NCBI GenBank assembly: GCA_018340805.1
Contig: JACMZG010001913.1
Coordinates: forward strand, 24,222,844 to 24,286,843
Origin: Microvelia longipes
Lineage: Eukaryota; Arthropoda; Insecta; Hemiptera; Veliidae
Direction of reading: 5' to 3'
Length of the DNA stretch: 64,000 nt
Part shown: positions 3,557 through 26,000 of the stretch, piece by piece
How positions within the stretch are numbered: the stretch's first letter is position 1
How the letters are laid out: every line of letters starts with the position of its first letter
Notes under the pieces: generated by a model
Told to the model about the DNA's origin: nothing
Seen by the model: only the letters and a program-made list of their open reading frames with translations
Databases searched by the model: none
Program-made: the position numbers and the translations under genes

Positions 3557-4127
3557 CTGATGTCTATGCTTTCGATTTTACTAAATCGAACATTTTCCCC
3601 CGAATACCCATCTTATATATTTTAATTAACAAAATACGATGATCTACAAGATCAAAGGCTATATGATGATCTACAACCAAAAGAGCAATGACTTTTTGCT
3701 TTTTATCTTTGCGCAAATGAAATTGCGGTAAATTTCATTTGATATATCAGTGAGAGCAGTTATGGTTGACATGTTTTTCCTAAACCCATACTATGATGTG
3801 GACATTAAATTCATTTTCTAAAAATTCAACAATCTATTTTTATTGCTTTTTCAAAAATGTTTGATAAAATTGGGAGGGTTGATCCCGGTCTATAGTTTTT
3901 CATTTTAAAGGATCGCCTTTCTTAAAGAGAGCGTAACCTTAGCGTACTTCATACGTTCCGAGAACTCCTCCTGCTTAAACATTATATTAACCAAATAGCA
4001 TAGAGGCTTGGCTATGACTGATCCTATTCCTTTATTTAATTTATTATTTATATAAATAATGTCCAAACAGTTTTATTTTTTAGGCTATTAATAATTTTTT
4101 TAATTTCATTCTCAGTACACGGTTTTA
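3557..4127 (-). pseudogene. Jockey-like non-LTR retrotransposon reverse transcriptase fragment
   Basis: Read on the minus strand, several frames carry the start of a LINE reverse transcriptase. There is a pattern like AKVTLFKKGD followed by KNYRP (3880-3960), then LSNIFEKAIK, a MGLGKT/GFRKN-like block with a following LTDISNEIY segment, and an AFD-like VDHHIAFDLVDHRIL stretch near 3640-3680. That order (KGD, NYRP, SKIFEK, GFR, AFDxVDH) is the one found in jockey/CR1-group elements. Stops and frameshifts show it is dead, and it is 5'- and 3'-truncated. Confidence 0.8.
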
Positions 4128-5985
4128 AGAAAATGGATATATAAAAAAAGGAACTTGATTTAAACTTTGATCTATATGTGCTTTATCTACAGATTCAACA
4201 TTAATTCCCATACCTTTTATTTTCCAAAATTATTCCATACCTTTTATTTTGAAGTAAAAACCTTTCTAAAATGTGCTAATACTTTCCACAGCAAAAAATT
4301 AAAAGGTAAAAAATGATATAAGTATATAAAACAGTGATAAGACAAAAAAAACTAAAGTGAAGATGATGGATGATGCAGTACAAGTAAAACAAAAGCCACA
4401 GCGCCACAACTTTTCCCTCTATAAAACATAATTATAAACTTTCCTTTCTTTTATCATCTAAGCCAAGACCATCAATATTTAATAAATATTTGACACACAG
4501 TGAAGCTTCATTTTAAAACTTGATCAAAGTCATCAATATTTTATTTAGTTTTTAAAAAAGGATTTTCTCACTCCACGAGAGATCGCTATTTAGGCCTTTT
4601 TTGAAATAGCAACTAAGTTTTGATTAAAACAAATAAATCATGGGTTAGAAATTTATATTGAAATGGGACAAATTAAAATAATTAATAAGGCGTAAATAAA
4701 TGTCCGTTTTAGAATGGCATTTATTTATTTGATAAATAAATATTTGCATTTATTCATTTGCCTTTCCATCTACACTGATCAAAGAGAAGTCAACAATAGA
4801 ACAACCGTAATTAACGAAAGTTGGCTTTTACCCTAGGGCCAGACATTACTATGTAATTTTTAGCTTTTCAATCTGTAGAGATATTAAAGACACTAATAAA
4901 CCCCCTAACAGGACTCAGACCCTATAATATACCAATCTGCTACTAAACACTTTTATAAGATGAACAGAGAGGAACAAGTCGCTGAGAAGGCTTGATTTAA
5001 AGTATAATAGGCCTCTCCTACAAATAAATATCTTTGTTCCTTTCATTAAATATCAAGGAATATTAACAATCAACCAAACAGATTAATATACAACTGTGAA
5101 GCCTTAGATATGCCAGAAAGGCAGACAATGGAAAGAGCAGGGCTCTCGTCCCAGGATTTAAACTTGGACCAATTCAAAAGGACTTTTGAGGGTAACATGT
5201 CTGTTAAGAGGCTTAAACTGTACCTTCAACCAGAAGATCTTACCGATCAGCTTACATAAACTATAATGAGACAGCAATAGCAAAAACTTCAAAAATCTAA
5301 CTAAGAAATGAAGGAAATTAAAAAAATTTATATCCAAAAGGGAGAAAGAGTAAACTTTTCTTTTTTATTTAGGACAATATAGCGTACTATAATAAATAAA
5401 CACATACGCGTTATTTACCAGATGATAATGTGCTTTCACCCTAAAATCAGACTTCACTGTTTCGTAGGATGACTAAGGAGACAGCAACTAAACTTATTTT
5501 TATTTATTAAACTGATTAATTAGCTGCTAACCTAAATTTATTTATTTGTGGTTTAAGTTAAATTGGTTTCTTTAAGTAAAATTTTATGTTAACTACGCAT
5601 ATAAGGTTGTGGATATGGAGGAGCTTTTAAATTTAACCCATAGTTTCTTCCCTAATAAATCAAAAGATATTTTACACTTTAATACATTTTTCCCTATTGG
5701 AGGTAAAATCTTATAACTCACTACAGGAGACAAGTAACCAATAAGTCGTTGTTCCCGAGCAATATTTAAAATCTTCGGCTTAGCTAGGTGATTTAACTAA
5801 AAGGTGTTCTCAAAAAGCACCGACTAAAAAGTATGACTTTACTAATTGTCGTATAAAAGACACTTTACGCCTTCTACACAACTCTTATATTCGAAAGTCT
5901 TTAAGGGTAAATTCAGCCTTTCCCTAATGCAACATAGCTGTAAAGTGGTTGTTTTACTAAGAAAAATATAATTTCCAAGCCATAT

Positions 5986-11000: not shown

Positions 11001-14000
11001 ATAATGCTAGGCAAAAAGAGGTAACGATGGAAAAAGATGGTTACTAGTTCAGACATTTTAGGACTTCTTCAGTCTGTCGAAAATCACACCTATAGAGAAT
11101 ACGGTGGTGAGGTTAATCCCGAAATCCTAAAGAGGTATTAGAGAATCAAACTACAGCCTCAGACCTCATATCACTGAGTTAAAATTAACGTATCCTCTCC
11201 ACCCTGTATTGCTACTGGTTTAGTCTCATCAAATGAACCGCATGTCTTTTCAGGTTAACAAAGTAGAAGAAGTGTTCGGTGAGCCTCTTATGTCTAATAT
11301 ATTTTCAGAAAGGGCTTTGAAAGTAGCTAAAGTAAGTGACTTTAGCTAAGTAAGTACGTAGTAAGTAAGTAAGTGAGGTGTATTTTAATTTTTAAAACAT
11401 CCTGAACCACATATTTGTTAAAATAATTAAAAAAAAAAGTTCAGCAGAAATATCTCAATTAATCGCAAAACCAAATTTAATTAATTTTAAAATGGACAAA
11501 AGACAAGTAAGCAGAAACCTCTATATTTAATAAACTAAGCAGACGCGTCACAATTTTTTATTTAATTTTTCAAAGAAAATGCCCTGAAATTAGCATAAAC
11601 TGAGCTTAAATGAGTACAAATAATGCTGTTTTTTGTAGTGTATGAGCTGTAGGGTAAATATGCGTCATTAGGTATAAGGTTACGTTTTATTCTTAAATTA
11701 TGTTATCTTAGATATTATAGTTATAACATCTCAATTCTTTCTTGAAATATTATTTCATCTAAATAATAAAAAAATATTAAAAAAATGAGTAAATAATTGA
11801 TTCTTATTTTTTTAAAAACCGAACAGAGCTATGGACTGGTCTCCACTACATCAGCTCAGGGCTGGTTTTATCCTAAAGATGAGGTGTATTTGCATAACTT
11901 AATATAAAGTTTATTTGAAAAAAAAAATGAATAGAATTATGTACTTTGTAAAATTATTTATACTGTTAATTTTCGTTCAAATACATATTGTTAAAAAAGT
12001 CCTTTGAAAAATTTGAAAAAAATTAAATAACAAGTTCTGACGGTACTGCTCAGAGTATTACATATTATATACCAAATAATTAAGCATAAAATTGATTGAT
12101 AAGCAAGAAAGCGCTCATTTCAATAACAATTCGCCCGGCTTGCAGGACCTCTGCGCCAGAATTTTATTATTTCCAAAGTGAAATTTTTATAAGGCATAAA
12201 ATATTTAAATTATCCTAGCATAGAAGCTACATGCCATTTACCTTTAATAATAGGTAAAACAAAGAAATAAGTTAATAGAACAGAGACTTTCAGACATTTA
12301 GAAACTCATCGGGCATATGGCACATAATAAGGTTCGCTAAAAGCAATAATTGTTAACAACTTCTAATGTTTTTTACACAAGAAATTTTTGCCCAAAGACG
12401 GCTCTACTTATTTTAACTCTGTTATCGAAGAGATTCTGATTATTTATATATTATAGCTATCATTTATATAATATAGTTCTAAACACGGCAATCTGTATAA
12501 TGCACTATTATCACATTAATTACCATTAAACAATTTTGTTAAAATAACATATGCTATAACACATTAACTAAATACGCATACATAAAATGCATTGTAATTA
12601 AATCTAACCTTCTAAAAGCTTTAATAACAAAGAAAATATTTCAAATTAATAAAAACAAACAGTAAAACCCTCGGGGGAATACTTGTGTTAAATATTATTT
12701 TAGGGGAAAAGCTACACATTGTTATTGTCATAATACAGGTGGAGAGGCTAAATGACCTCTTGCTTGCACATGGACTGGAATTGCGTTTAACTAAATACAC
12801 AGTAATATATTTTTTACATACTGAAGGTTTTCTACTTTTAAAAAAATTGTCGCATCTAAAAAAGCAAAAGTAGGTAAATTAAAACTTTTGAAATAATTAA
12901 ACATTAATTCAAAAAATCGGGTACGGAGTACCTCGGAACTTTTCCTCATCACATCGGATTCGCTACGCTCATCCTCCCTACTTCGGACTCGCTTTACCCG
13001 CCCTCAGATAGTAAATACATCTGTTTTATTCCCAGTGGTCACCCATCCAGGCAGTGACCACGCTCGACGCTACTTAACTTTGATGATCCAACACAATTCA
13101 TGGATATACGGGTCATATTAAAACGATACTTGGAGTACTTATTTTTACGTAAAGGTATATATACACTTGTACCGAATTTCAGCTCTATTAGATTATTCTT
13201 CGATTTATTACAATTTTTTTAAAATTTATACAAGTCATCTGATAAAATTTGAGCTAATGCTGATACTGAGATAAAGCATGGCACATTCGTTAGTCTTATC
13301 TACGCCTACATGTGTGCCAAATCTCAAAAGGATCCCAACATTTTTTTGCGTTTAATGATATTTCGAAATTTTTTATAGTCATTTTTGCGGGTTAGTGACG
13401 TCATAAAAATATTTTCCGGATAGCACAACTATACCTTTAAACATATAGTTTAAAGGTATAGTTATGCTAGAGAGTTGAAAGTTTCAACTCTCTAGCATAA
13501 ATACACTGCGAGCCACGATGAAAACACACACATTCACACACAGACAAACAACTTTGTGAAAACCACTCAGAACGATAAGCCGGTTTCGGATTTTTAGCAA
13601 ACACAATACTTCCTATATACCTACGGCATAAATAAGAAAAATTAAAAACTGCTCCAGGCATGAAACTAAGCGTCTACGATGATTTCATTCAAATATTACA
13701 TGCCATATGACAATTTTTACTTAAAATATAAAAATTAAAATATCAAATAAATAGCAATACGTGTATAATAATAATATATGGCAGTAGGGAAGAAAAGCCG
13801 ATTCTGGGCCCGTCTCCTCCTCACTCATAACCTTCCACCTGTAACCACCTATAACCAACCTTATCCACCTATAACCTCCCTTATCACCTCTCTTATCAAC
13901 CTATAACCTACCACTTGTAACCACCTACAACCTCCCTTATCACCTCTCTTATCAACCTATAACCTTCCACCTGTAACCACCTATAACCTACCTTATCCAC

Positions 14001-17000
14001 TAATAACCTTCCTTATAAGTAAGAAATTAAGTAAGAGGAATTAAGTAATTAATGCGATGACGTCACACTAATGCAATATTTATCGGGGAATACAGGTTTG
14101 GACACGTTTATGCGATGTCGTCACACTAATGCAAGTTATAACATGTTTCAACAGGTTTTGATATGTTTATGCGATTACGTCACACTAATGCAATTTTAAC
14201 AAGTTCAACAGGTTTTGACACGTTTATGCGATGACGTCACACTAATGCAATTTTTAACAAGTTCAACAGGTTGACATGTTTAGGCTCTGCGATAGCTCAT
14301 ATTGGCTCCAAATGGCTCCACATAGGCTCCAAATGGGATCCACATCGGCTCCAAATGGCTCATATAGGCTCCACAATGGTCATATAGGCTCCAAAGCGGC
14401 TCTAAATGGCTCATATAGGCTCTAAATGGCTCCGATATAGCTCCAATTGGCTCATATAGGCTCTAAAGGGGCTCTAATGGCTCATATTGGCTCCAACATG
14501 GCTCCTACTCGGCTCCAAATGGCTCATATAGGCTCCAAAGCGGCTCTAAAAGGCTCATATAGGCTCCAAAGCGGCTCATATTGGCTCCAACATGGCTCAA
14601 CCCTGGCTCATATAGGCTCCTACTCGGCTCCAATTGGCTCCTACTCGACTCATATAGGCTCAAAAGCGGTTCTAAATGGCTCATATAGGCTCTAAATAAC
14701 TTATTAAGGCTCCACATGGCTCATATAGGCTCCTACTCGGCTCATAAAGGCTCCGACTCAGCTCACATAAGCTCAAAAGCAACTCTAATTAGGCTCTGCG
14801 ATAGCAGAGCCTATATGAGCCAACGTGGAGCCTATGAGAGCCATTTGGAGCTATTAAGAGCCGAGTAGGAGTCTATAAGAGCCAATTAGAGCTGCTTTGG
14901 AGCCTTTTCCAATCCACTCAGATCCAAAAATAAATTTTTACCTTATGCTTTTAATGGTAATATTGAAATTAAAAATAACTGAATTAAATCTTAATATGAC
15001 GTATCGATTCTATCGAATTTATTTCTAGTAAAAAATTTAACATGTCCAGTACAATGCACTAGATTTGTATCGAAATCAGCCAATTTAAATGATCTTAAAA
15101 TAACTCATGCTTTGTGTTACAGTGGTCAAATAATGAGAAGATGCGCAGTATGTACTGAAAAGGCATACTGTATGCACTGCGCACACTGCAGTAAAGAAGT
15201 TTGTCCACAATGCAAAGCTGCTCATATGGATATTTTAAGAAGAGAAATAACACGTATTAATCACCAGGTAAAGTTTATAATAATTCTAATTATTAAACCT
15301 AATACTTTAATTCTGACAAAAATTGTCTGCAATAGATTGAGCCAGATTATTGCAGAAAATAAGTTTAATAGTCTAGGATCCAGACCTAATTAACGTGGTG
15401 CATTTTGTACTGTTTTGAACCATTTTTTTTTAAATTACACCTTGAATAATGAAAAAATCCAGAGGGGGCCTTTCATATGATTGCAAACGCTCAAATTTTC
15501 AGAAAATCACTATTTTTAGGTTTCTTGAAATAAAAGGTTCCCTGTGGGGAATCACTTCGTACAGCCAGCTCCCGTAGTATAAGAAAAATATTATAAGTAG
15601 AATAATAAACTAAACTATAAAGAAGAGGACGTAACAAATAAAAAAGAATTCTTTATCTTGTTTAGGTAACAAATTATCAAAAATTGATTACGTAATATCA
15701 TTATTTATTTATTATATCAATTAAATTAATTCATTATTTTTGGTTTTATCAGGTACGAAGGTCAGTAGGAAGGCTTCAAGATGTACTAGCAATTGTCGAA
15801 AAGAACATGGCAGCACTCCAACAAAACTGTGGTTCCGTTTCGGAAGAAATAGAAGAGATTTACCGTCGATTATCTAAAGCAGTTAAGGACAGGACGGAAT
15901 ACCTAAGAGAAGAAATCGGACGATATCAGAGCGTTGAGATGAAAAATTTAACCACACTTAAAGATAATATGGAAATGGAAATTTCTAATATAGAGAGTAA
16001 TTGTGATTTAGCAGATAAGCACATGCAGAGCGAGGATGTCGAGTGGGAAGACTGTGAATTATTAGACACTAAAGAGATATTTCTAAAAACAATAGATTTT
16101 CTAAGACACTTCGAAGCCGATTTAGGTGATTACAGCCGACGAGTTAGATTCGTCATGACACACGATCCTAATCAGCTTGTAATGCACGTGGCTACTTACG
16201 GTGAACTCAATATCCACATGCCACATCAGTTCATAGGAATGACAAACAACCAACAACTTCAAGCACCTGGGCCTGGGTTGATGAGATCTAAGAGCGATCA
16301 TAGACTTACAGCGCAGTATAGACAGCAAGATGATAGATACGATAGGGGTGATCCTGATGGTGGAAGGGTGTCACCGTTAGGAGGAAGAAAGTTTGGTGAG
16401 AGGTGAGTATTCAACATAAAATATAGGACTGAAAGACTAACGGACAAATAAAGGAAACATATAGAATAAACACACAGAAGCACTTTGGTTTCTAAACCAT
16501 GCCACGAGAGGCAGCCTCACAACTCTACGTCTACATTTGTTGATGTTGTTGATCTACAGTAGTTCGTTAGTCTTATTAATATTTTTGGAAGTGACATACT
16601 AACATGAGTCCCAAACCTCTTTATTCTTGTTTACATATAATTAGACATGTCAAACGATAAACGAATTAATATCGAAATTAATAATAATTCATTTTCCCTC
16701 ATTCAAATAATTAACCCCAGAATTTGCACACTATCAATCATCTAGGAAGCACACCCTCTGTACATGGCAGCACATATGACTAGTTCATAGGGTTCATTTA
16801 GACAGACCAGCTAGACTCTGGCTAGCGCCGAGTACTAGTTCACACTGTGCTTAGTTCATCTCGTCTTACTAGCTCCTCTAATCACATTAGTCTCACTTGC
16901 CCCGTACCCGTTTAAACAGTCTCACCAATCCCATCAGCTCGTCTAGCATCACCAGAGTCTAGCTAGGTTCAGCGCTTTAGCTAGTCCAGGGTCAACCAAC

Positions 17001-20000
17001 AGAGAACTCTGGCAACCCCGACGCCAGTGTGCACGATCTCGTTCTATATCCCTGATCTAAAAGTTGCATCTGAAGTTCCGCAGTGTTAATAGGAGACGTC
17101 TGTCTTCAAGAACCAAGCACTTTGTTCCTAGCAACTTATTATACGTTATTCGTGTCCCCGCCTTCGCTTTAACTATCCAAGTTTTCAGTTGGATAGTTAC
17201 AAGTTGCCGGCCTTTCACATAGAAAGGCCGGCAAAACCTTGACTTTTTTTGAGCTGGGGATAACTGAAACGTGGATCCAGACTTGTCTAGGATGAACAGG
17301 AACCAACCCTGCAGTAGCACCTAAGGGAACAGATGGGTTGGCTGGCCTTGAATTCAAGACATTCCGAGTGTACGGTACATGGGATAATCTCATGTTAAGC
17401 TCCTCCCTGGCTGGATTTGAACCATTGACCTCCAGGTCCAAAGGCGAGCGCTCTCTCACTGAGCAATCAGACTCGCGTAGACTAATATTATAATGATATT
17501 GGTGATGTAGAAATAATATATGCTCCGAAAAAATAATACAAAAAACTTATTATGATTCCGATACTGGGAATATTTTAGAAATTCAGCCTCACGTCTCAAC
17601 TTGCCACCCTGTTTAACATGTAAATACTGTCCTCTCTCAACGGTTTAGTAGAATCGTTCGCGAATATTCATTTCACCCCAGTTTTGCTCAGGGTAATAGA
17701 GTTAGGTGATCGATGGACAGGCGAGGCAATTATTAAGCTAGTAACAGTTTTGCTTTATTAAATTAAAATTACACAAAAAAAAGTTTAATGTCCTCTTAGC
17801 TTAGAAACAAATCATACAACTATAAAATGTCAATACTCGGTAATAATACTAAGTTATCAGTTATTGATTTATTTTTATAAATTTATTAGAAACTGAATAT
17901 TTTAAATGTATTTCTATAATTAAAATTGTACAGTAAAGGTCCCTAATTTCATTGTCAGATTTTCCTTTTGGAATTCACTTAAAGTGATACATTAATTAAC
18001 TACAACTAACCATTTATTAAGTTTTACGTATTAACTATTTCAGGTACGAGCGAAGAAATAACCAAAGACAAGACAGGGACTACGATGATTACGAAGAAAG
18101 ACCATCAGCACGAAGTAGGATCCGTTCAAGACTGCGACAACACAACGCTGACACTGATTCCGATAACGATACGACAGGAAGATCGGTCCGGTTCAGCGAT
18201 CCAGCACCTCCGCAGCGAGACAGAACTATCGATACGGAGGATGTGGCTAAGGGTCCTCTATCTGGAATCACAAGGCTCTATGACTCTCCAAGAGTTATGA
18301 AGAAGCTTCAAGATGCCCAGATTAAGAAGGACAAACCACCGACCCCAGTACCTGAGAAACCTAAAATTGTTCCTTTCCAGCCTCCTAAAGTTAAACCAGC
18401 AGGTAATTTTAAAATTATTTATTATTTTTAAGATATAAGATACAGTCTTTCATGTGGGCTAAGATAATAGATATGAATAAACATAATCGAAATCGTATTA
18501 TAAGTGACAATGCTAGTATTTAACTATACGAAACATATTTCATATATAAGTGATACCACACAATTAAAGATACAAACATTGTATCATGTAACAAACATAG
18601 TAAAAATAAATTTTTAAATATTTCGCTTAATTCAATGGAATTATTGTTATAACTAAACAATAACAAAAAATATAATAATCCCAGGCACAAAGCAAGTTAT
18701 TTCCCTGGGCCTTTCAGTTCCAGTAACCCAACGTCAAGTAAGTGAGGAGGATGAGATAGCAAAAGTAAAACGTCAAATGAAAAATGCTCCAGGTGAGAGG
18801 CCTGACACCGTACAAGAGAGACCCGGATCAGAGCGAGTATCGGCACTGAGGAGAGAGGAAGAACCGTCTTCGCCCACAAGAACATCACCGCAGGAGAGGC
18901 AGTCATCAGTTCAGACTTCCCAGGTATATAACCATGCCTTTTTCTTTTTTGAGCAAAAATGCTCGGTGAGTTTAAAGCAGTTCACCAAGAGAAAACAAAT
19001 AATGACGTATATTTTTAGGTGAGAGTAGTAGAGAGTGCAAGCGATAGCATGGTTGCGATAATAAACAATATTAGCAGTGTTATACCTTCTAGAACCTACT
19101 GTTCTGAATCCACAATAGAAGAAACATATTTGTGTTATATATGGCTCTGAGAAATACAGAGGTGACATCACTGGTTCAGGATGAGCTTTCTTCTCTTAGT
19201 AGGAGAGATATCCTCTAATATATCAACCTTTCAAAGAGAATCTTTGTAAAGGTAAAGCAGGCTAAAGAATCGGGACTGGCAACAAGGGCCCAACTACTGG
19301 CCTCACTTTGCCTTCCCACCCCATAACTACTACAACTACTACTACAGCTAAAGTGATGCTTACGTGGTCGAGGATGTTAACGCAACAGATGAACTTAAAA
19401 AATCAGGAAGGCCTGAAATTCGATATCGGATGTTGCACTCACAGGTTTTTATACAATTGAATTAATTCTTACATTGGCCATAAAGGATGCACAATACAAC
19501 CACCTCAGGTTGTTTCCCAAAGATTAAGTAGTAGCATTAGTACTCGTTACTCAATTTTTCAGGACTTTTCAAGGTAAATGCGCATATTTATTTCATAGGT
19601 TATACAAAACTATTCTCATCCTTCCTACATTGGCAGTGCACACCAGTTTTTACACTATTTTAAAGCTTAGCTTAACCTTATCAATAAAAGGGTTTAGAAC
19701 ATTTCTTTCAAAAAATTCAGAAAACAAATAATAACTAGTACTAATTTGTTTCAAAGGAAATTCACTTCAACTAGTACAGTTTGTTTTACGAATATTTTAA
19801 TTCACAGGTTGGGTCAGGTTCGGAAGAATCAGACGAAGGATCAGTACCGGCCAGCCCTGCCAGTCCACAACGTAAAACTGCTCCGCCTCCTCCACCACAG
19901 GTCCGACCACAGAGTGCATCCTCAAGAAGATCATCCACTGCATCCTCCACAGATACTCATCCTACTACTGGTAGGTTGTTTTACTTTTTTAATTATCCGT

Positions 20001-23000
20001 ATTCAGTTAGCGATTGTGAAAACATTAATTTTAGAAAAAATGTTCACTAAATCAAGGGAGTTTAGTTTAGTTAAGTATTTGTCTAGTTTTAGAGAATGTA
20101 TAATACTAAAATACCTCTATCCTAATTTTGTTTCTGCAAAATGTACACAATAACAAAAAGCACGAACATTTTGTGTTCTCAAAATATATGTTTTTCACAG
20201 GACATAACTGTGCATACTTAAAATGAAGAAAAAAAAAGCACTATACAAAAAGGAAAACTATTTTAGAGTTTAAACATTTAACAATGTTTCTGCACCCCAC
20301 TCTTTTCGCAACAGAAGAACATTGAAGTTCTGTATTATTTTCACAAATAAAAATAATATGAAACTTAGAGTGGTATATTATACAAGACAATTTATCAACG
20401 ACACTGCTTACACGCAATAACTTGAAATCTAAACGTTCATAGCAATCGTATGTTGAAGTTTCATAAAAATATTTCTTTATATTAAACCTGCTAAGAAACA
20501 AGAATTAAAATTCGATCAGTGATTGTAGTCAATGCCCTTTTAATTAGTTTTCTGAATGAGCTAGCTCATTTAAAAATATAATTAGAGGATAAGTTATTAA
20601 GCCTAGAAGCTTATCAGGAATCAGAAGAGCTGGGCCTGCTTAGGTGGTACCTAATCCCTACGATCAAAATACCAAAGTTATCAAACTTTTTAATTCAAAG
20701 TAACTATATTTATATGAATTGAAAGGACACGCAAGCTGAACCCTAAACATTACAAAAGAATTTCGCCTTCTCGGAAGGGTGAAATCGAGTGATGTCTTAG
20801 CAAACGAACTTGATAACAAAGACTTTAAGCTTTTTTATATATTTTTATGTAAAACCAAAAAGATATTAGAGAAGGCATAGCCAATCAGTAGGGGAGAAAA
20901 GCCGATTCTGGAGCCTCCTCCTCATCCTCCTCCACCACCTCCTCCTCAATCATCTCTTTATAGTTTTATACCCCCCCTCTTTTGCTTTGCATGAATAATA
21001 ACAGTAACATTAAATATGCTTGATGTGTAATAACAGTAACATTAAATATGCTTTGCATAGTGTAATAACAGTAACATTAAATATGCTTTGCATAAAAATA
21101 AATAGGTCCATATAGGCAGAAGCAGGATGATTTTAGGTATGATCAGTAGGACCAGACCACCCTAGATTATCAAGTGTCTCTCTTAGTAAAAAGCCTTCCC
21201 ACCACGTCAAGGTGGAGACACACCGGGAAGGTGTACAGTGCCCCGTCCTCGCACTGTACTATGGCGAACATCCTCTTTAAAAAAAATATCGCCTCTATAT
21301 ATATTTTGTATTTTTTATATTTTTTAATTTTTTTTTTGTATTTTTATTTTTTTTTCTAACGTATTTACAATTACACTACATCTCTTAGCGCCATATAGGT
21401 TTACGGGACGCTATGCCACGCCAGTGACCTTAAAAGATGGAATATTTGCGGTTTACGGGACGCTATGCCCACGCCAGGGACCGCTCTGAGGGTTTACGGG
21501 TCGCTATGCCACGCCAGGGACCCTCTTTTGGGTTTACGGGACGCCATGCCACGCCAGGGACCAATTATGGCACGCTTCGCCATACTAGAGTTCCATCTCG
21601 TATTTGCGGCAGCTGCTGAGACATGAGTTTAAGGCTATTTAACATATGATTAAACTCTAAGAATAAAACGCGAAAATAAATCCCTATAAATGAAACTCAC
21701 TTGTACACATGAAACCGTAGTAAATTTATGATTAAACCGAGTGCAGGTCCATTTTACGAGCCATTATACAAACTCCAGGAGCCGGTGTGGAGCCTATATG
21801 ACCCATTTAGAGCCGAGTAGGAGCCACTTTGGAGCCGATTTTGGAGCCATCTAGAGCCTAAATGAGCCATTTAGAGCTATATCGGAGCCATTTAGAGCCG
21901 GTGTGGAGCCGATTTGGAGCCATCTAGAGCCTAAATGAGCCATCTTGAGCCTATATGAGTCGAATAGGAGCCACTTTGGAGCCAAGTAGGGCCTATATGA
22001 GCCTAAATGAGCCATCTTGAGCCTATATGAGTCGAATTGGAGCCACTTTGGAGCCTACATAAGCCGAGTAGGAGCCGAGTTGGAGCCTATATGGAGCCAT
22101 CTAGAGCCGGTGTGGGCCTATATGAGCCATTTAGAGCCGGTGTGGAGCCAATATGAGCCATTTAGAGCTATATCGGAGCCATTTAGAGCCGGTGTGGAGC
22201 CAATATGAGCTATCGCAGAGCCTATATGAGCCGATTTGGAGTTGGGTTGCAGCTAATATGGGTTACCTGGAGATGTTGAAGCCGAATTTTTTAGCTTTCG
22301 TTTAGTAGTATATATATGAGCAAGTGGAGCTCCAACTTTAGTATTGAGCTAGACACCGAGCAGAGATGTTCTCCAAGATACGTGATTCGAGCCTCTACAA
22401 GAAGAGATTTGAAAACTTGACATTTAGTTGTCCAGACTGCTGTAAAAAGTTTGTACATAAAAAGAATTTACTTCGACACCAACGAGATAAACACTGTGAG
22501 GGGGTTGAACGCGAGGATGGTTCAGAGTTGGGATTCTACAAGGACGCCATTGCAGGTAAACATGATGAGTCAATTGAAGACAATAACTCTAGCGAGGGCA
22601 GTATGTGGATTCGGAAAAGGTAGAAAAGAAGAGAAGAGACGACGAGGAGGAGGATGAAGAAGATGATGAGGAGGATGAACCTATTGATGATGTAGTAAGT
22701 AACAAAGACACAGAAGAGCCAAAATAATTGAGATGTTAAATTTAAGTGAAACACATTATGATGAATCGATTGAGAGTATAGAAATATCACTCTCATTATC
22801 CGTACGCAAATCAAGCTAGACGCCAGAGAAGAGATACGGATTCCGATACAATACCAAGACATTTATACACTTCCGAGTGAATGTTTTTATATATTTGGAA
22901 CTATCATTTTTAAAAGAAGGAGGAAAACGGCACGGCGAAGCATAGACTCATCAACAACGCATTCCCGTTTTTATTCGACGAGATTCGGTATGAGATTTGT

Positions 23001-26000
23001 GGAGTCGAGATTGATAAAGTCAGAAACCCCGGAATGACTTCGACTCTAAAAGGCTTGCATCTCACGCGCCTATGCGTATTCCTTAACAAATATGGGATGG
23101 ACAATACCCTTCAATGAAGTACAAGAAGAATCATCCACCGGTACAACGTTTGTCTACCTTTTCCTCGTTACTCGGATTCGCGGAAGATTGCCGAAAAGTT
23201 TTGATAAACGTAAAGCAAGAAGCTAATTTTGGTAAGAGCGAGAAACGATTCAAATTGCTTTGTACAGCATGTTTCCATACGTCGATACGGATGCACGGGC
23301 AGAAGTTCGCGAGAAAGTTAAAATTGAACTATTATCGATTGTTGGAAAATACCTTACGTTTCGGTTAACGAAGTTCAGAAACTAAATTTAATTAATTATT
23401 TAAAAACAGAAAAAATTTCTCTCCATTTCCGAGCGTGGGATATGCACGAGTATCCGCTTTTACCTACGTCAACCGACAAGTATGGTCCGATTAAAACTTC
23501 GACTCAACTCGAGAAACCGCGATTTTTAATTTTGGCCTTTCAAAAAGGTAGAAATAACGTCGTCGATAAGGCATCCAGTTGTTTCGATCACTGCGACTTG
23601 ACAAATGTCAAGCTTTATCTCAATTCACGAGTGTTCCCCTACGATGATTTAAATTTAAATTCTCCCAAAATAAATTTGCTTTATTTGTACCACATGTACG
23701 CGGCGTTTCAAACGTCGTACTACAACACTTATCAGAGTCTACCGTACGTATGCTTTACAGATTTTAAGAATAAATGTCCTGTTGTAATCATTGATTGTTC
23801 AAAACAATCAGAGTCTATCAAAAAGGGTCCGGTAGATGTCAGATTAGAATTTGAATCTGAAAAAGATTTCCCGGCAAATACTACCGCGTACTGTCTATTG
23901 TTACATGATAGATTAGTTCAGTACAACCCCCTGACTAGCATTGTGCATAAATTGACATGAATAAACATGTCTGGTCGAGGGGTGGGGTATGTATAATAAA
24001 GAAAGCCAAGCAATAATAAATCAGTATTGCGCAAGATGTCGAACATTTACCATCTAAGTGACGGTAAAAGGTATTAGTTTGTTTAGTTAAAGGTATAGCT
24101 TTTTTGAGATTAGAACATGCTAAAAGAAGTGTGAACATTCACATGTCCGATTTTGAGATGATGAGATCCGCGAAAAATGAAATGATAATTATTTTTTGTA
24201 AAACGTAGTAAAGAAGATGACAACTTGATCAAAAATTTGGTTTAATAAAAGTAAGATTGGTTAATCCTAAATTTCACGGACGTCAAGTAATTATTCGTCC
24301 AATTTGTTCGTATGAAGAAGATAAAATATTTGTTGGTGTTGTTTTAAAAAAACCAGAGTGGGATTTATTTTCGAGTTTATTCTTAGAGTTTAATCATATG
24401 TTAAATAGCCTTACACTCATGTCTCAGCAGCTGCCGCAAATACGAGATGGAACTCTAGTATGGCGAAGCGTGCCATAATTGGGTCCCTGGCGTGGCATGG
24501 CGTCCCGTAAACCCAAAGAGGGTCCCTGGCGTGGCATAGCGACCCGTAAACCCTCAGAGCGGTCCCTGGCGTGGCATAGCGTCCCGTAAACCGCAATATT
24601 CCATCTTTTAAGGTCACTGGCGTGGCATAGCGTCCCGTAAACCTATATGGCGCTAAAGAGATGTAAGTGTAATTGTAAATACGTTAGAAAAAAAAATATA
24701 AAATACAAAAAAAAAATAAAAATATAAAAAATACAAAAAAAAAAAATTAAAAATATAAAAAAATACAAAAATATATATAGAGGCGATATTTTTTTAAAGA
24801 GGATGTTCGCCATAGTACAGTGCGAGGACGGGGCACTGTACACCTTCCCGATGTGTCTCCACCTTGACGTGGTGGGAAGGCTTTTTACTAAGAGAGACAC
24901 TTGATAATCTAGGGTGGTCTGGTCCTACTAGATCATACCTAAAATCATCCTGCTTCTGCCTATATGGACCTATTTATTTTTATGCAAAGCATATTTAATG
25001 TTACTGTTATTACACTATGCAAAGCATATTTAATGTTACTGTTATTACACTATGCAAGCATATTTAATGTTACTGTTATTTTCTATGCAAAGCAAAAGAG
25101 GGGGGGGGGTATAAAACTATAAAGAGATGGTTGAGGAGGAGGTGGTGGAGGCGGTGGTGGAGGAGGAGGACGAGGAGGCTCCAGAATCGGCTTTTCTCCC
25201 CTACTCCAATCTCCATTACATTGATAGGGCTCTTTGAAACCTCCTCCAAGAGTGAGATAAGGTTATAATAAATCAATTGTTTTCGGCTTGCCGCACAATG
25301 GCTGTATTTTGGTTTTTTATTTTAAACGTATTACTTTATAAGTTACTGTAATTTTGTTCAGTTTACTTGAATATATTGTTGTGGAAGGTGGTCAGATAAC
25401 TATAATTTAGGGCCTCTTTATTAATATCTCTAGGTGTAAAACCAACAAAATATATTCAAATATAGACTGACAAACTAGATAAAATAATTGCATTAACATA
25501 ATTTAAAAGATGCTATCTCATATTTCCTTAATATCTGATTGATGCTTCCTCTATTTTTCTAATCATTTTGATTTTTCTTCAGGCTTATTAGACTTGTATT
25601 TTCATGATGAGTTTAATTTACCAAATATATCCTCACAATGCACCGCATACATTCACAACATCGTCCTGCTAAATTTCACAGGATTTTCTGGTTGTATACA
25701 AATAAGTTCCAAAGAAGCTTCCTCATACTTTAATGCAACTTCCACTTCAATAAGATAATCCCTCATATGAAGGTACCGCATTAGATCCAAGTAGTTTCCT
25801 CATACTTTAATGTACCTTATACTTTAATAAGATAATCCCTCCCGCATTAGGTAGTGATAATCCCTCATATGTACCGATTAGATCCAAGTAGTTTCCCTCA
25901 TACTTTAATGTACCTTATACTTTAATAAGATAATCCCTCATATGAAAGTACCGCATTAGATCCAAGTAGTTTCCTGATACTTTAATGTACCTTATACTTC

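What the first reader, a model, noticed from the sequence alone, without database searches (positions are those of the whole stretch)
20881..25211. A 4.3-kb Polinton-type element with perfect 6-bp target duplication carrying a capsid remnant but no polymerase or integrase
Seen: identical CCAATC on both sides, AGT...ACT ends, about 0.8-kb TIRs. Inside are a zinc-finger/acidic ORF and a broken double-jelly-roll capsid-like gene. Known: 6-bp duplications and AG-starting TIRs are Polinton/Maverick hallmarks, and Polintons and adintoviruses encode double-jelly-roll capsids. Inference: a miniature, trans-mobilised or viral-particle-associated lineage that kept a capsid module while losing replication and integration genes. 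The clean TSD argues for insertion at this size rather than decay in place, although later internal deletion is also possible. The inside-TIR mini-gene set may be a distinct undescribed element family.
Basis: partly seen in the sequence, partly recalled or inferred. Interest (0 to 1): 0.88.

Follow-up and report, generated by a model that had tools for sequence, protein, structure and literature searches.

The report
Capsid-carrying mini-Polinton transposon family
A short virus-like jumping element, present in many copies of one layout in this probably insect genome, has lost its own copying and insertion genes but keeps a virus capsid gene joined to a zinc-finger piece, and appears to be moved by larger relatives in the same genome.

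Summary
Window 20887-25205 is a 4,319-bp element with AGTAGGGG...CCCCTACT ends, ~0.8-kb TIRs, a perfect CCAATC duplication, one C2H2 finger and a double-jelly-roll (DJR) capsid gene (PF21738). It is no one-off deletion: 16 of 20 further stretches fetched from the genome hold the short form (3.4-6.0 kb; 15 with capsid), and 14 of 17 short copies, window included, have perfect 6-bp duplications. The other 4 of 20 are long relatives sharing right TIR, right-end gene and capsid; two of them between them show B-type polymerase, A32-like ATPase and chromo-integrase by Pfam. So this is an amplified non-autonomous Polinton subfamily, probably replicated and inserted in trans. New here: in three siblings the finger runs in frame into the capsid, a fusion absent from the 120 listed capsid relatives. 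The capsid frame shows purifying selection (omega-like 0.15-0.24 at shared changes), but capsid alleles are shared with long elements, so conversion may explain much; the finger region shows little constraint. The 'broken' capsid may be partly assembly artefact: indels do not track substitutions, and 41 of 43 one-base insertions repeat a neighbour. Open: genome-wide counts, the long relatives' left ends, any function of the fusion.

The parts
20881..20886 (.). left target-site duplication CCAATC
   Evidence: identical to 25206-25211
20887..21684 (+). left terminal inverted repeat, 798 bp, starts AGTAGGGGAG
   Evidence: 785 matches, 5 mismatches to the right arm
21769..22249 (.). GAGCC-rich minisatellite between left TIR and zinc-finger frame; also in the 12 sibling copies measured (31-70 GAGCC/GGCTC per kb)
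22348..22620 (+). ORF piece with one C2H2 zinc finger; the acidic stretch that follows is out of frame in this copy
22735..23960 (+). double-jelly-roll capsid gene (PF21738), frame interrupted in the assembly; ORF pieces 22774-23037, 22914-23117, 23087-23368, 23328-23960
   Evidence: fold from a relative
24035..24478 (+). right-end gene of unknown function, running into the right TIR; full native frame seen in a long relative (L047:8579-9049)
   Evidence: no Pfam match above cut-off
24360..25205 (-). right terminal inverted repeat, 846 bp, ends CTCCCCTACT
25206..25211 (.). right target-site duplication CCAATC

Best explanation
The window element is one copy of an amplified, non-autonomous Polinton subfamily. 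Its founder joined a zinc-finger/acidic coding piece, just upstream of the capsid start codon, to the right part of a Polinton (capsid, right-end gene, right TIR), with loss of polymerase, ATPase, integrase and protease (junction and layout shown; that it arose by internal deletion plus capture is inferred). The short form keeps the TIR ends, so full-length Polintons in the same genome can supply protein-primed polymerase and integrase in trans. These copy the short linear molecule, which makes its two TIRs alike, and insert it with a 6-bp duplication (trans supply inferred; TIR likeness and duplications shown). The capsid stretch keeps exchanging sequence with the long elements. The simplest account of its good preservation is descent from, and recombination with, capsid genes under selection there.
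For: Siblings: 16 of 20 fetched stretches hold the short form, 4 of 20 the long one. 14 of 17 short copies have perfect 6-bp duplications at AGTAGGG-type ends; sizes 3,440-5,988 bp. No two copies share both flanks in register within 200 bp, although some flanks carry the same dispersed repeats at other offsets. Long relatives: DNA_pol_B_2 E 2e-27 and rve E 3e-13 with a chromodomain in L047, Pox_A32 E 2e-7 and DJR E 5e-77 in L042; the same AGTAGGGG motif at the capsid-side end in 4 of 4. TIR pair within a copy 98.65% alike on average, arms of different copies 96.6-96.8%; the own pair beats the best same-side arm of any other copy in 14 (finger side) and 13 (capsid side) of 17, and same-side arms are no closer than opposite-side arms. 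Exchange: 21 of 51 shared capsid polymorphisms of the short copies segregate for the same alleles in the long ones; 578 of 1275 site pairs fail the four-gamete test.
Against: The left end of no long element was seen: one is behind an assembly gap (L051) and in another no TIR lies within about 2 kb beyond the polymerase, so 'same element at both ends' is not shown. TIR likeness within a copy could also come from recent insertion or chromosomal gene conversion; in 3-4 of 17 copies it fails. Several frames of the long copies are interrupted in the assembly. The stretches were chosen by likeness to the window TIR (40 of 463 candidates scored; 23 arms of those 40 fetched), so the short/long ratio is not a genome ratio.
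Confidence: 0.8

Rival explanations
1. Functional satellite: the zinc-finger/capsid fusion protein is made and selected in the short elements themselves, for example to favour packaging of short genomes (the finger touching element DNA such as the GAGCC arrays) or to interfere with the helper's particle.
For: Finger and capsid N-part lie in one open frame in L033, L036 and L037; four finger ligands invariant in 17 of 17 copies; capsid kept in 16 of 17 short copies, one of them (L041) with an internal loss; capsid omega-like 0.15 for shared changes, 0.24 for shared changes at sites invariant in the long copies, 0.50 for singletons, against 0.13-0.17 in long copies; 2 in-frame stops in 21 copies.
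Against: Shared changes in the finger region are 12 nonsynonymous to 2 synonymous, as expected without constraint, though its singletons lean synonymous (17 of 47, P 0.011). The shortage of stops alone is not significant (singletons 2 against 5.5 expected, P 0.09; shared 0 against 2.8, P 0.06). No copy examined has the whole finger-capsid frame uninterrupted in the assembly. The right-end gene shows no codon-position bias in short or long copies. Only 5 long copies were compared, so alleles that look short-only may exist in unsampled long ones.
Confidence: 0.25
2. Solo decay: the window copy is a full Polinton that lost its middle after insertion.
For: Long relatives with the same right end exist; frame interruptions in this copy.
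Against: The finger-plus-capsid layout recurs in 15 siblings, at different sites with different 6-bp duplications.
Confidence: 0.03
3. Host-domesticated finger-capsid gene spread by duplication.
For: Finger-capsid fusion not seen in the listed capsid relatives.
Against: TIRs with different 6-bp duplications in 14 of 17 copies; no two copies share both flanks in register.
Confidence: 0.03

Closest known systems
Polinton/Maverick elements (polintoviruses)
   Same: AGT...ACT ends, long TIRs, 6-bp duplications, DJR capsid; long relatives here carry B-type polymerase, A32-like ATPase and chromo-integrase. End motifs and duplications as reported for vertebrate Mavericks (PMC8097293, passages seen).
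   Different: 4.3 kb instead of 15-20 kb (size from PMC4028283, passage seen); no polymerase, integrase, ATPase or protease found; finger joined to the capsid.
Non-autonomous deletion derivatives of DNA transposons
   Same: Own ends, no transposition enzyme, presumably moved in trans by a full-length relative, multi-copy (definition seen in PMC6431247 passages).
   Different: Keeps a structural gene whose frame bears the mark of selection, with a new N-terminal domain.
Virophages and Polinton-like viruses (Sputnik, mavirus)
   Different: Polinton-like viruses encode other replication proteins and mavirus a pPolB (PMC11071308, passages seen; for Sputnik from memory); here none was found, and the presumed helper is a Polinton in an animal genome.

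Membership tests
Polinton/Maverick | AG(T)...(A)CT ends on long TIRs | tested here: met
Polinton/Maverick | 6-bp target-site duplication | tested here: met
   window perfect; 14 of 17 short copies perfect, 1 (L033) in an AT repeat not definable, 2 (L035, L045) not found by the script
Polinton/Maverick | double-jelly-roll major capsid protein | tested here: met
   PF21738; fold of an 85% identical relative
[quoted passage not shown]
   none in 23 ORFs overlapping the window element; present in long relative L047
Polinton/Maverick | RVE integrase | tested here: not met
   none in 23 ORFs overlapping the window element; present in long relative L047
Polinton/Maverick | packaging ATPase and cysteine protease | tested here: not met
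   none in the window element. In long relatives the ATPase is found; the ORF I read as protease had no Pfam match, so that label rests on position and a recalled motif
Polinton/Maverick | minor (penton) capsid protein | tested here: inconclusive
   right-end gene and the 321-aa ORF of L049 have no Pfam match above cut-off; not folded
non-autonomous derivative of a Polinton | full-length relative with the same ends in the same genome | tested here: inconclusive
   same right TIR, right-end gene and capsid in 4 of 20 stretches; left ends not seen
non-autonomous derivative of a Polinton | several independent insertions of the short form | tested here: met
satellite virus / virophage-like | packaged particle dependent on a helper | not testable with these tools
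   needs experiments

The most novel reading that the evidence does not exclude
The short elements are capsid-bearing satellites of a Polinton virus in an animal: they borrow polymerase and integrase, but make their own chimeric capsid protein with an N-terminal zinc finger that biases packaging toward short genomes or spoils the helper's particle, and selection in the short lineage keeps that protein.
Probability: 0.2. Interest if true: 0.88.

Novelty: new variant of a known kind. Interest (0 to 1): 0.62.

Why it matters
Whether Polintons spread as transposons or as viruses rests on indirect evidence from their capsid genes. A non-autonomous Polinton family that drops its enzymes but keeps the capsid is a natural test: if the capsid is selected in the short form, particles matter to its spread; if only conversion keeps it, transposition in trans suffices. 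Such short forms may have been overlooked: one survey removed Polinton-like elements under 10 kb as incomplete (PMC4028283, passage seen). The finger-capsid fusion was not seen in the 120 listed capsid relatives.

Tried and rejected
Rejected: a unique decayed Polinton (siblings); chance duplication; segmental duplicates; no capsid homology. Origin of the zinc-finger/acidic piece: not found. It does not match the polymerase N-terminal fingers of the long elements significantly; protein searches with residues 1-82 of the L037 frame (4 candidates) and with the 129-aa L031 frame (1370 candidates) gave nothing at E 0.001. DJR relatives in viral contigs: 62 pattern matches, none confirmed. PHROGs: one unknown family at E 0.0013 for one capsid piece, the rest weaker. 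Genome-wide counts of capsid, polymerase and finger copies could not be had: the genome search answered once and not again. Of the 40 scored TIR arms, 15 beyond the window's two and the 23 fetched were not fetched as long stretches; five of these (L026-L030) were looked at in their 3.6-kb loci: three show the capsid side, one the finger, one only TIR.

Literature: paper searches listed no paper whose title or abstract start describes a short capsid-bearing Polinton family; the library lacks most subscription papers, and Repbase and Dfam were not searchable, so novelty is provisional.

Caveats on counts: the two-copy rule for 'shared' changes treats converted tracts as many events; the neutral expectation reshuffles change types over one native frame. 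The 'omega-like' figures are not a codon-model fit.

Full report
Observation. The element at 20887-25205 is flanked by CCAATC on both sides, begins AGTAGGGGAG and ends CTCCCCTACT. The TIRs are 798 and 846 bp, with 785 matches, 5 mismatches and 19 gap events. Between them lie a GAGCC-rich minisatellite (21769-22249), a C2H2 ORF, a DJR capsid gene in several ORF pieces and a right-end gene that runs into the TIR. PF21738 matches two of the six pieces scanned first above cut-off and one weakly; none of the 23 listed ORFs overlapping the element on either strand matches a polymerase or integrase.

The family. A search of the 664.6-Mb genome with the left TIR listed 78 matches from 40 scored of 463 candidates. 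I fetched 20 stretches covering 23 of those arms, the top ones after the window's two. Fifteen have the window's layout (TIR, GAGCC spacer, finger, capsid, right-end gene, TIR), one (L032) has the finger but has lost the capsid, and four (L042, L043, L047, L049) are long elements. With the window this gives 17 short copies, 16 of them with the capsid (L041 with an internal loss). The longest matching duplication is exactly 6 bp in 14 of the 17; L033 sits in an AT repeat, and L035 and L045 did not pass the script. In 200 bp of flank no two copies share both sides in register; some flanks carry the same dispersed or tandem repeats at other offsets. L032 also has a perfect duplication, but whether it lost the capsid before or after insertion is unknown.

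The long relatives. By Pfam L047 encodes DNA_pol_B_2 (E 2e-27) and rve integrase (3e-13) with a chromodomain, L042 a Pox_A32 ATPase (2e-7) and the DJR capsid (5e-77); L043 and L049 were judged from like ORFs, not scanned except one ORF of L049 without a match. The ORF between integrase and capsid had no Pfam match; I read it as the usual cysteine protease from its position and a GSVNCGHLC stretch, from memory. All four long elements end in the same AGTAGGGG motif at the capsid side. Their left ends were not seen: L051, upstream of L042, holds a further capsid copy, long-type as far as its short upstream stretch shows, and then an assembly gap; L049 with L052 shows no TIR within about 2 kb beyond the polymerase.

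The fusion. In the long elements the capsid frame starts MEVLNL and no finger was matched upstream (one 66-bp hit in L043 spans the junction). In L033, L036 and L037 finger, acidic stretch and capsid N-part share one open frame of 288, 423 and 437 aa. Of 246 relatives found with the L037 frame, the 120 listed cover at most 70% of it, and the four whose sequences I read start at the capsid methionine. Searches with the finger part found nothing at E 0.001.

Interruptions. Laid on the native 410-aa capsid frame of L031, 21 copies have 0-29 indel events but 2 in-frame stops in all. In the 19 copies compared, indels (1-29) do not track substitutions (19-43; Spearman 0.28, P 0.24; L031 is the reference, L041 left out as incomplete). 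Of 43 one-base insertions 41 repeat a neighbouring base, and 58 of 82 one-base deletions fall in runs of two or more, against 48% of bases. This looks like long-read consensus error in repeats, though slippage in the organism is not excluded. So 'remnant' may overstate the damage in this copy (20 indel events, no in-frame stop).

Selection. In the capsid of short copies shared changes fall 10/2/39 on codon positions 1/2/3 and singletons 31/17/43; in the five long-type copies 3/1/13 and 5/1/28. Omega-like ratios (shared, singletons) are 0.15 and 0.50 in short, 0.13 and 0.17 in long copies; shared short-copy changes at sites invariant in the long copies give 0.24 (19 synonymous, 10 not). Singletons are less constrained in short than in long copies (Fisher P 0.0005), and the shortage of stops alone is not significant (P 0.06-0.09). 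Against a selected fusion: the finger region's shared changes are 12 nonsynonymous to 2 synonymous (omega-like 1.6), while its singletons give 0.51 (P 0.011). The right-end gene shows no codon-position bias in either group (P 0.16-0.61). Capsid sequence is exchanged with the long elements: 21 of 51 shared polymorphisms carry the same alleles in both, and 578 of 1275 site pairs fail the four-gamete test.

Replication. The two TIRs of one copy are on average 98.65% alike (substitutions only); arms of different copies 96.6-96.8%, whether same side or opposite side. The own pair is the closest in 13-14 of 17 copies. The arms are thus mostly made alike within each element, as expected if each cycle copies a linear molecule through its paired ends, the scheme known for protein-primed replication (general knowledge). 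Recent insertion and chromosomal conversion remain possible.

Verdict. An amplified non-autonomous Polinton subfamily with a finger-capsid fusion, very probably moved in trans by long Polintons of the same genome. The structural claims are shown; trans supply is inferred; function of the fusion is open. Papers: passages of PMC4028283, PMC8097293, PMC11071308 and PMC6431247 were seen; all others only as search listings.

Noticed in passing
window 13783-14908: A second Polinton-type end (first 38 bp 85% like the element) followed by a foldback GGCTC/GAGCC minisatellite; no right TIR found. A truncated relative just upstream of host exons.
   Followed up: partly
window 14995-19022: ORF pieces that look like exons of a host TRIM-type gene (weak TRIM coiled-coil match, below cut-off); the element lies about 1.9 kb downstream of the last of these.
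   Followed up: partly
L051:90-1672 and L042: Two long-type capsid copies in the same orientation, separated by a run of N (L051 about 1727-2679), perhaps tandem Polintons.
   Followed up: no
L036:1010-1489 and 3960-4976: A short element with part of the capsid and right-end gene at both ends, in opposite orientation, as if its TIRs had been extended inward.
   Followed up: no
L032:438-3877: A 3,440-bp copy lacking the capsid with a perfect GAGAAC duplication.
   Followed up: partly
L049:8993-9346, L051:2693-2998: The polymerase region of the long elements starts with several C2H2-like fingers (by eye), without significant likeness to the short elements' finger.
   Followed up: partly
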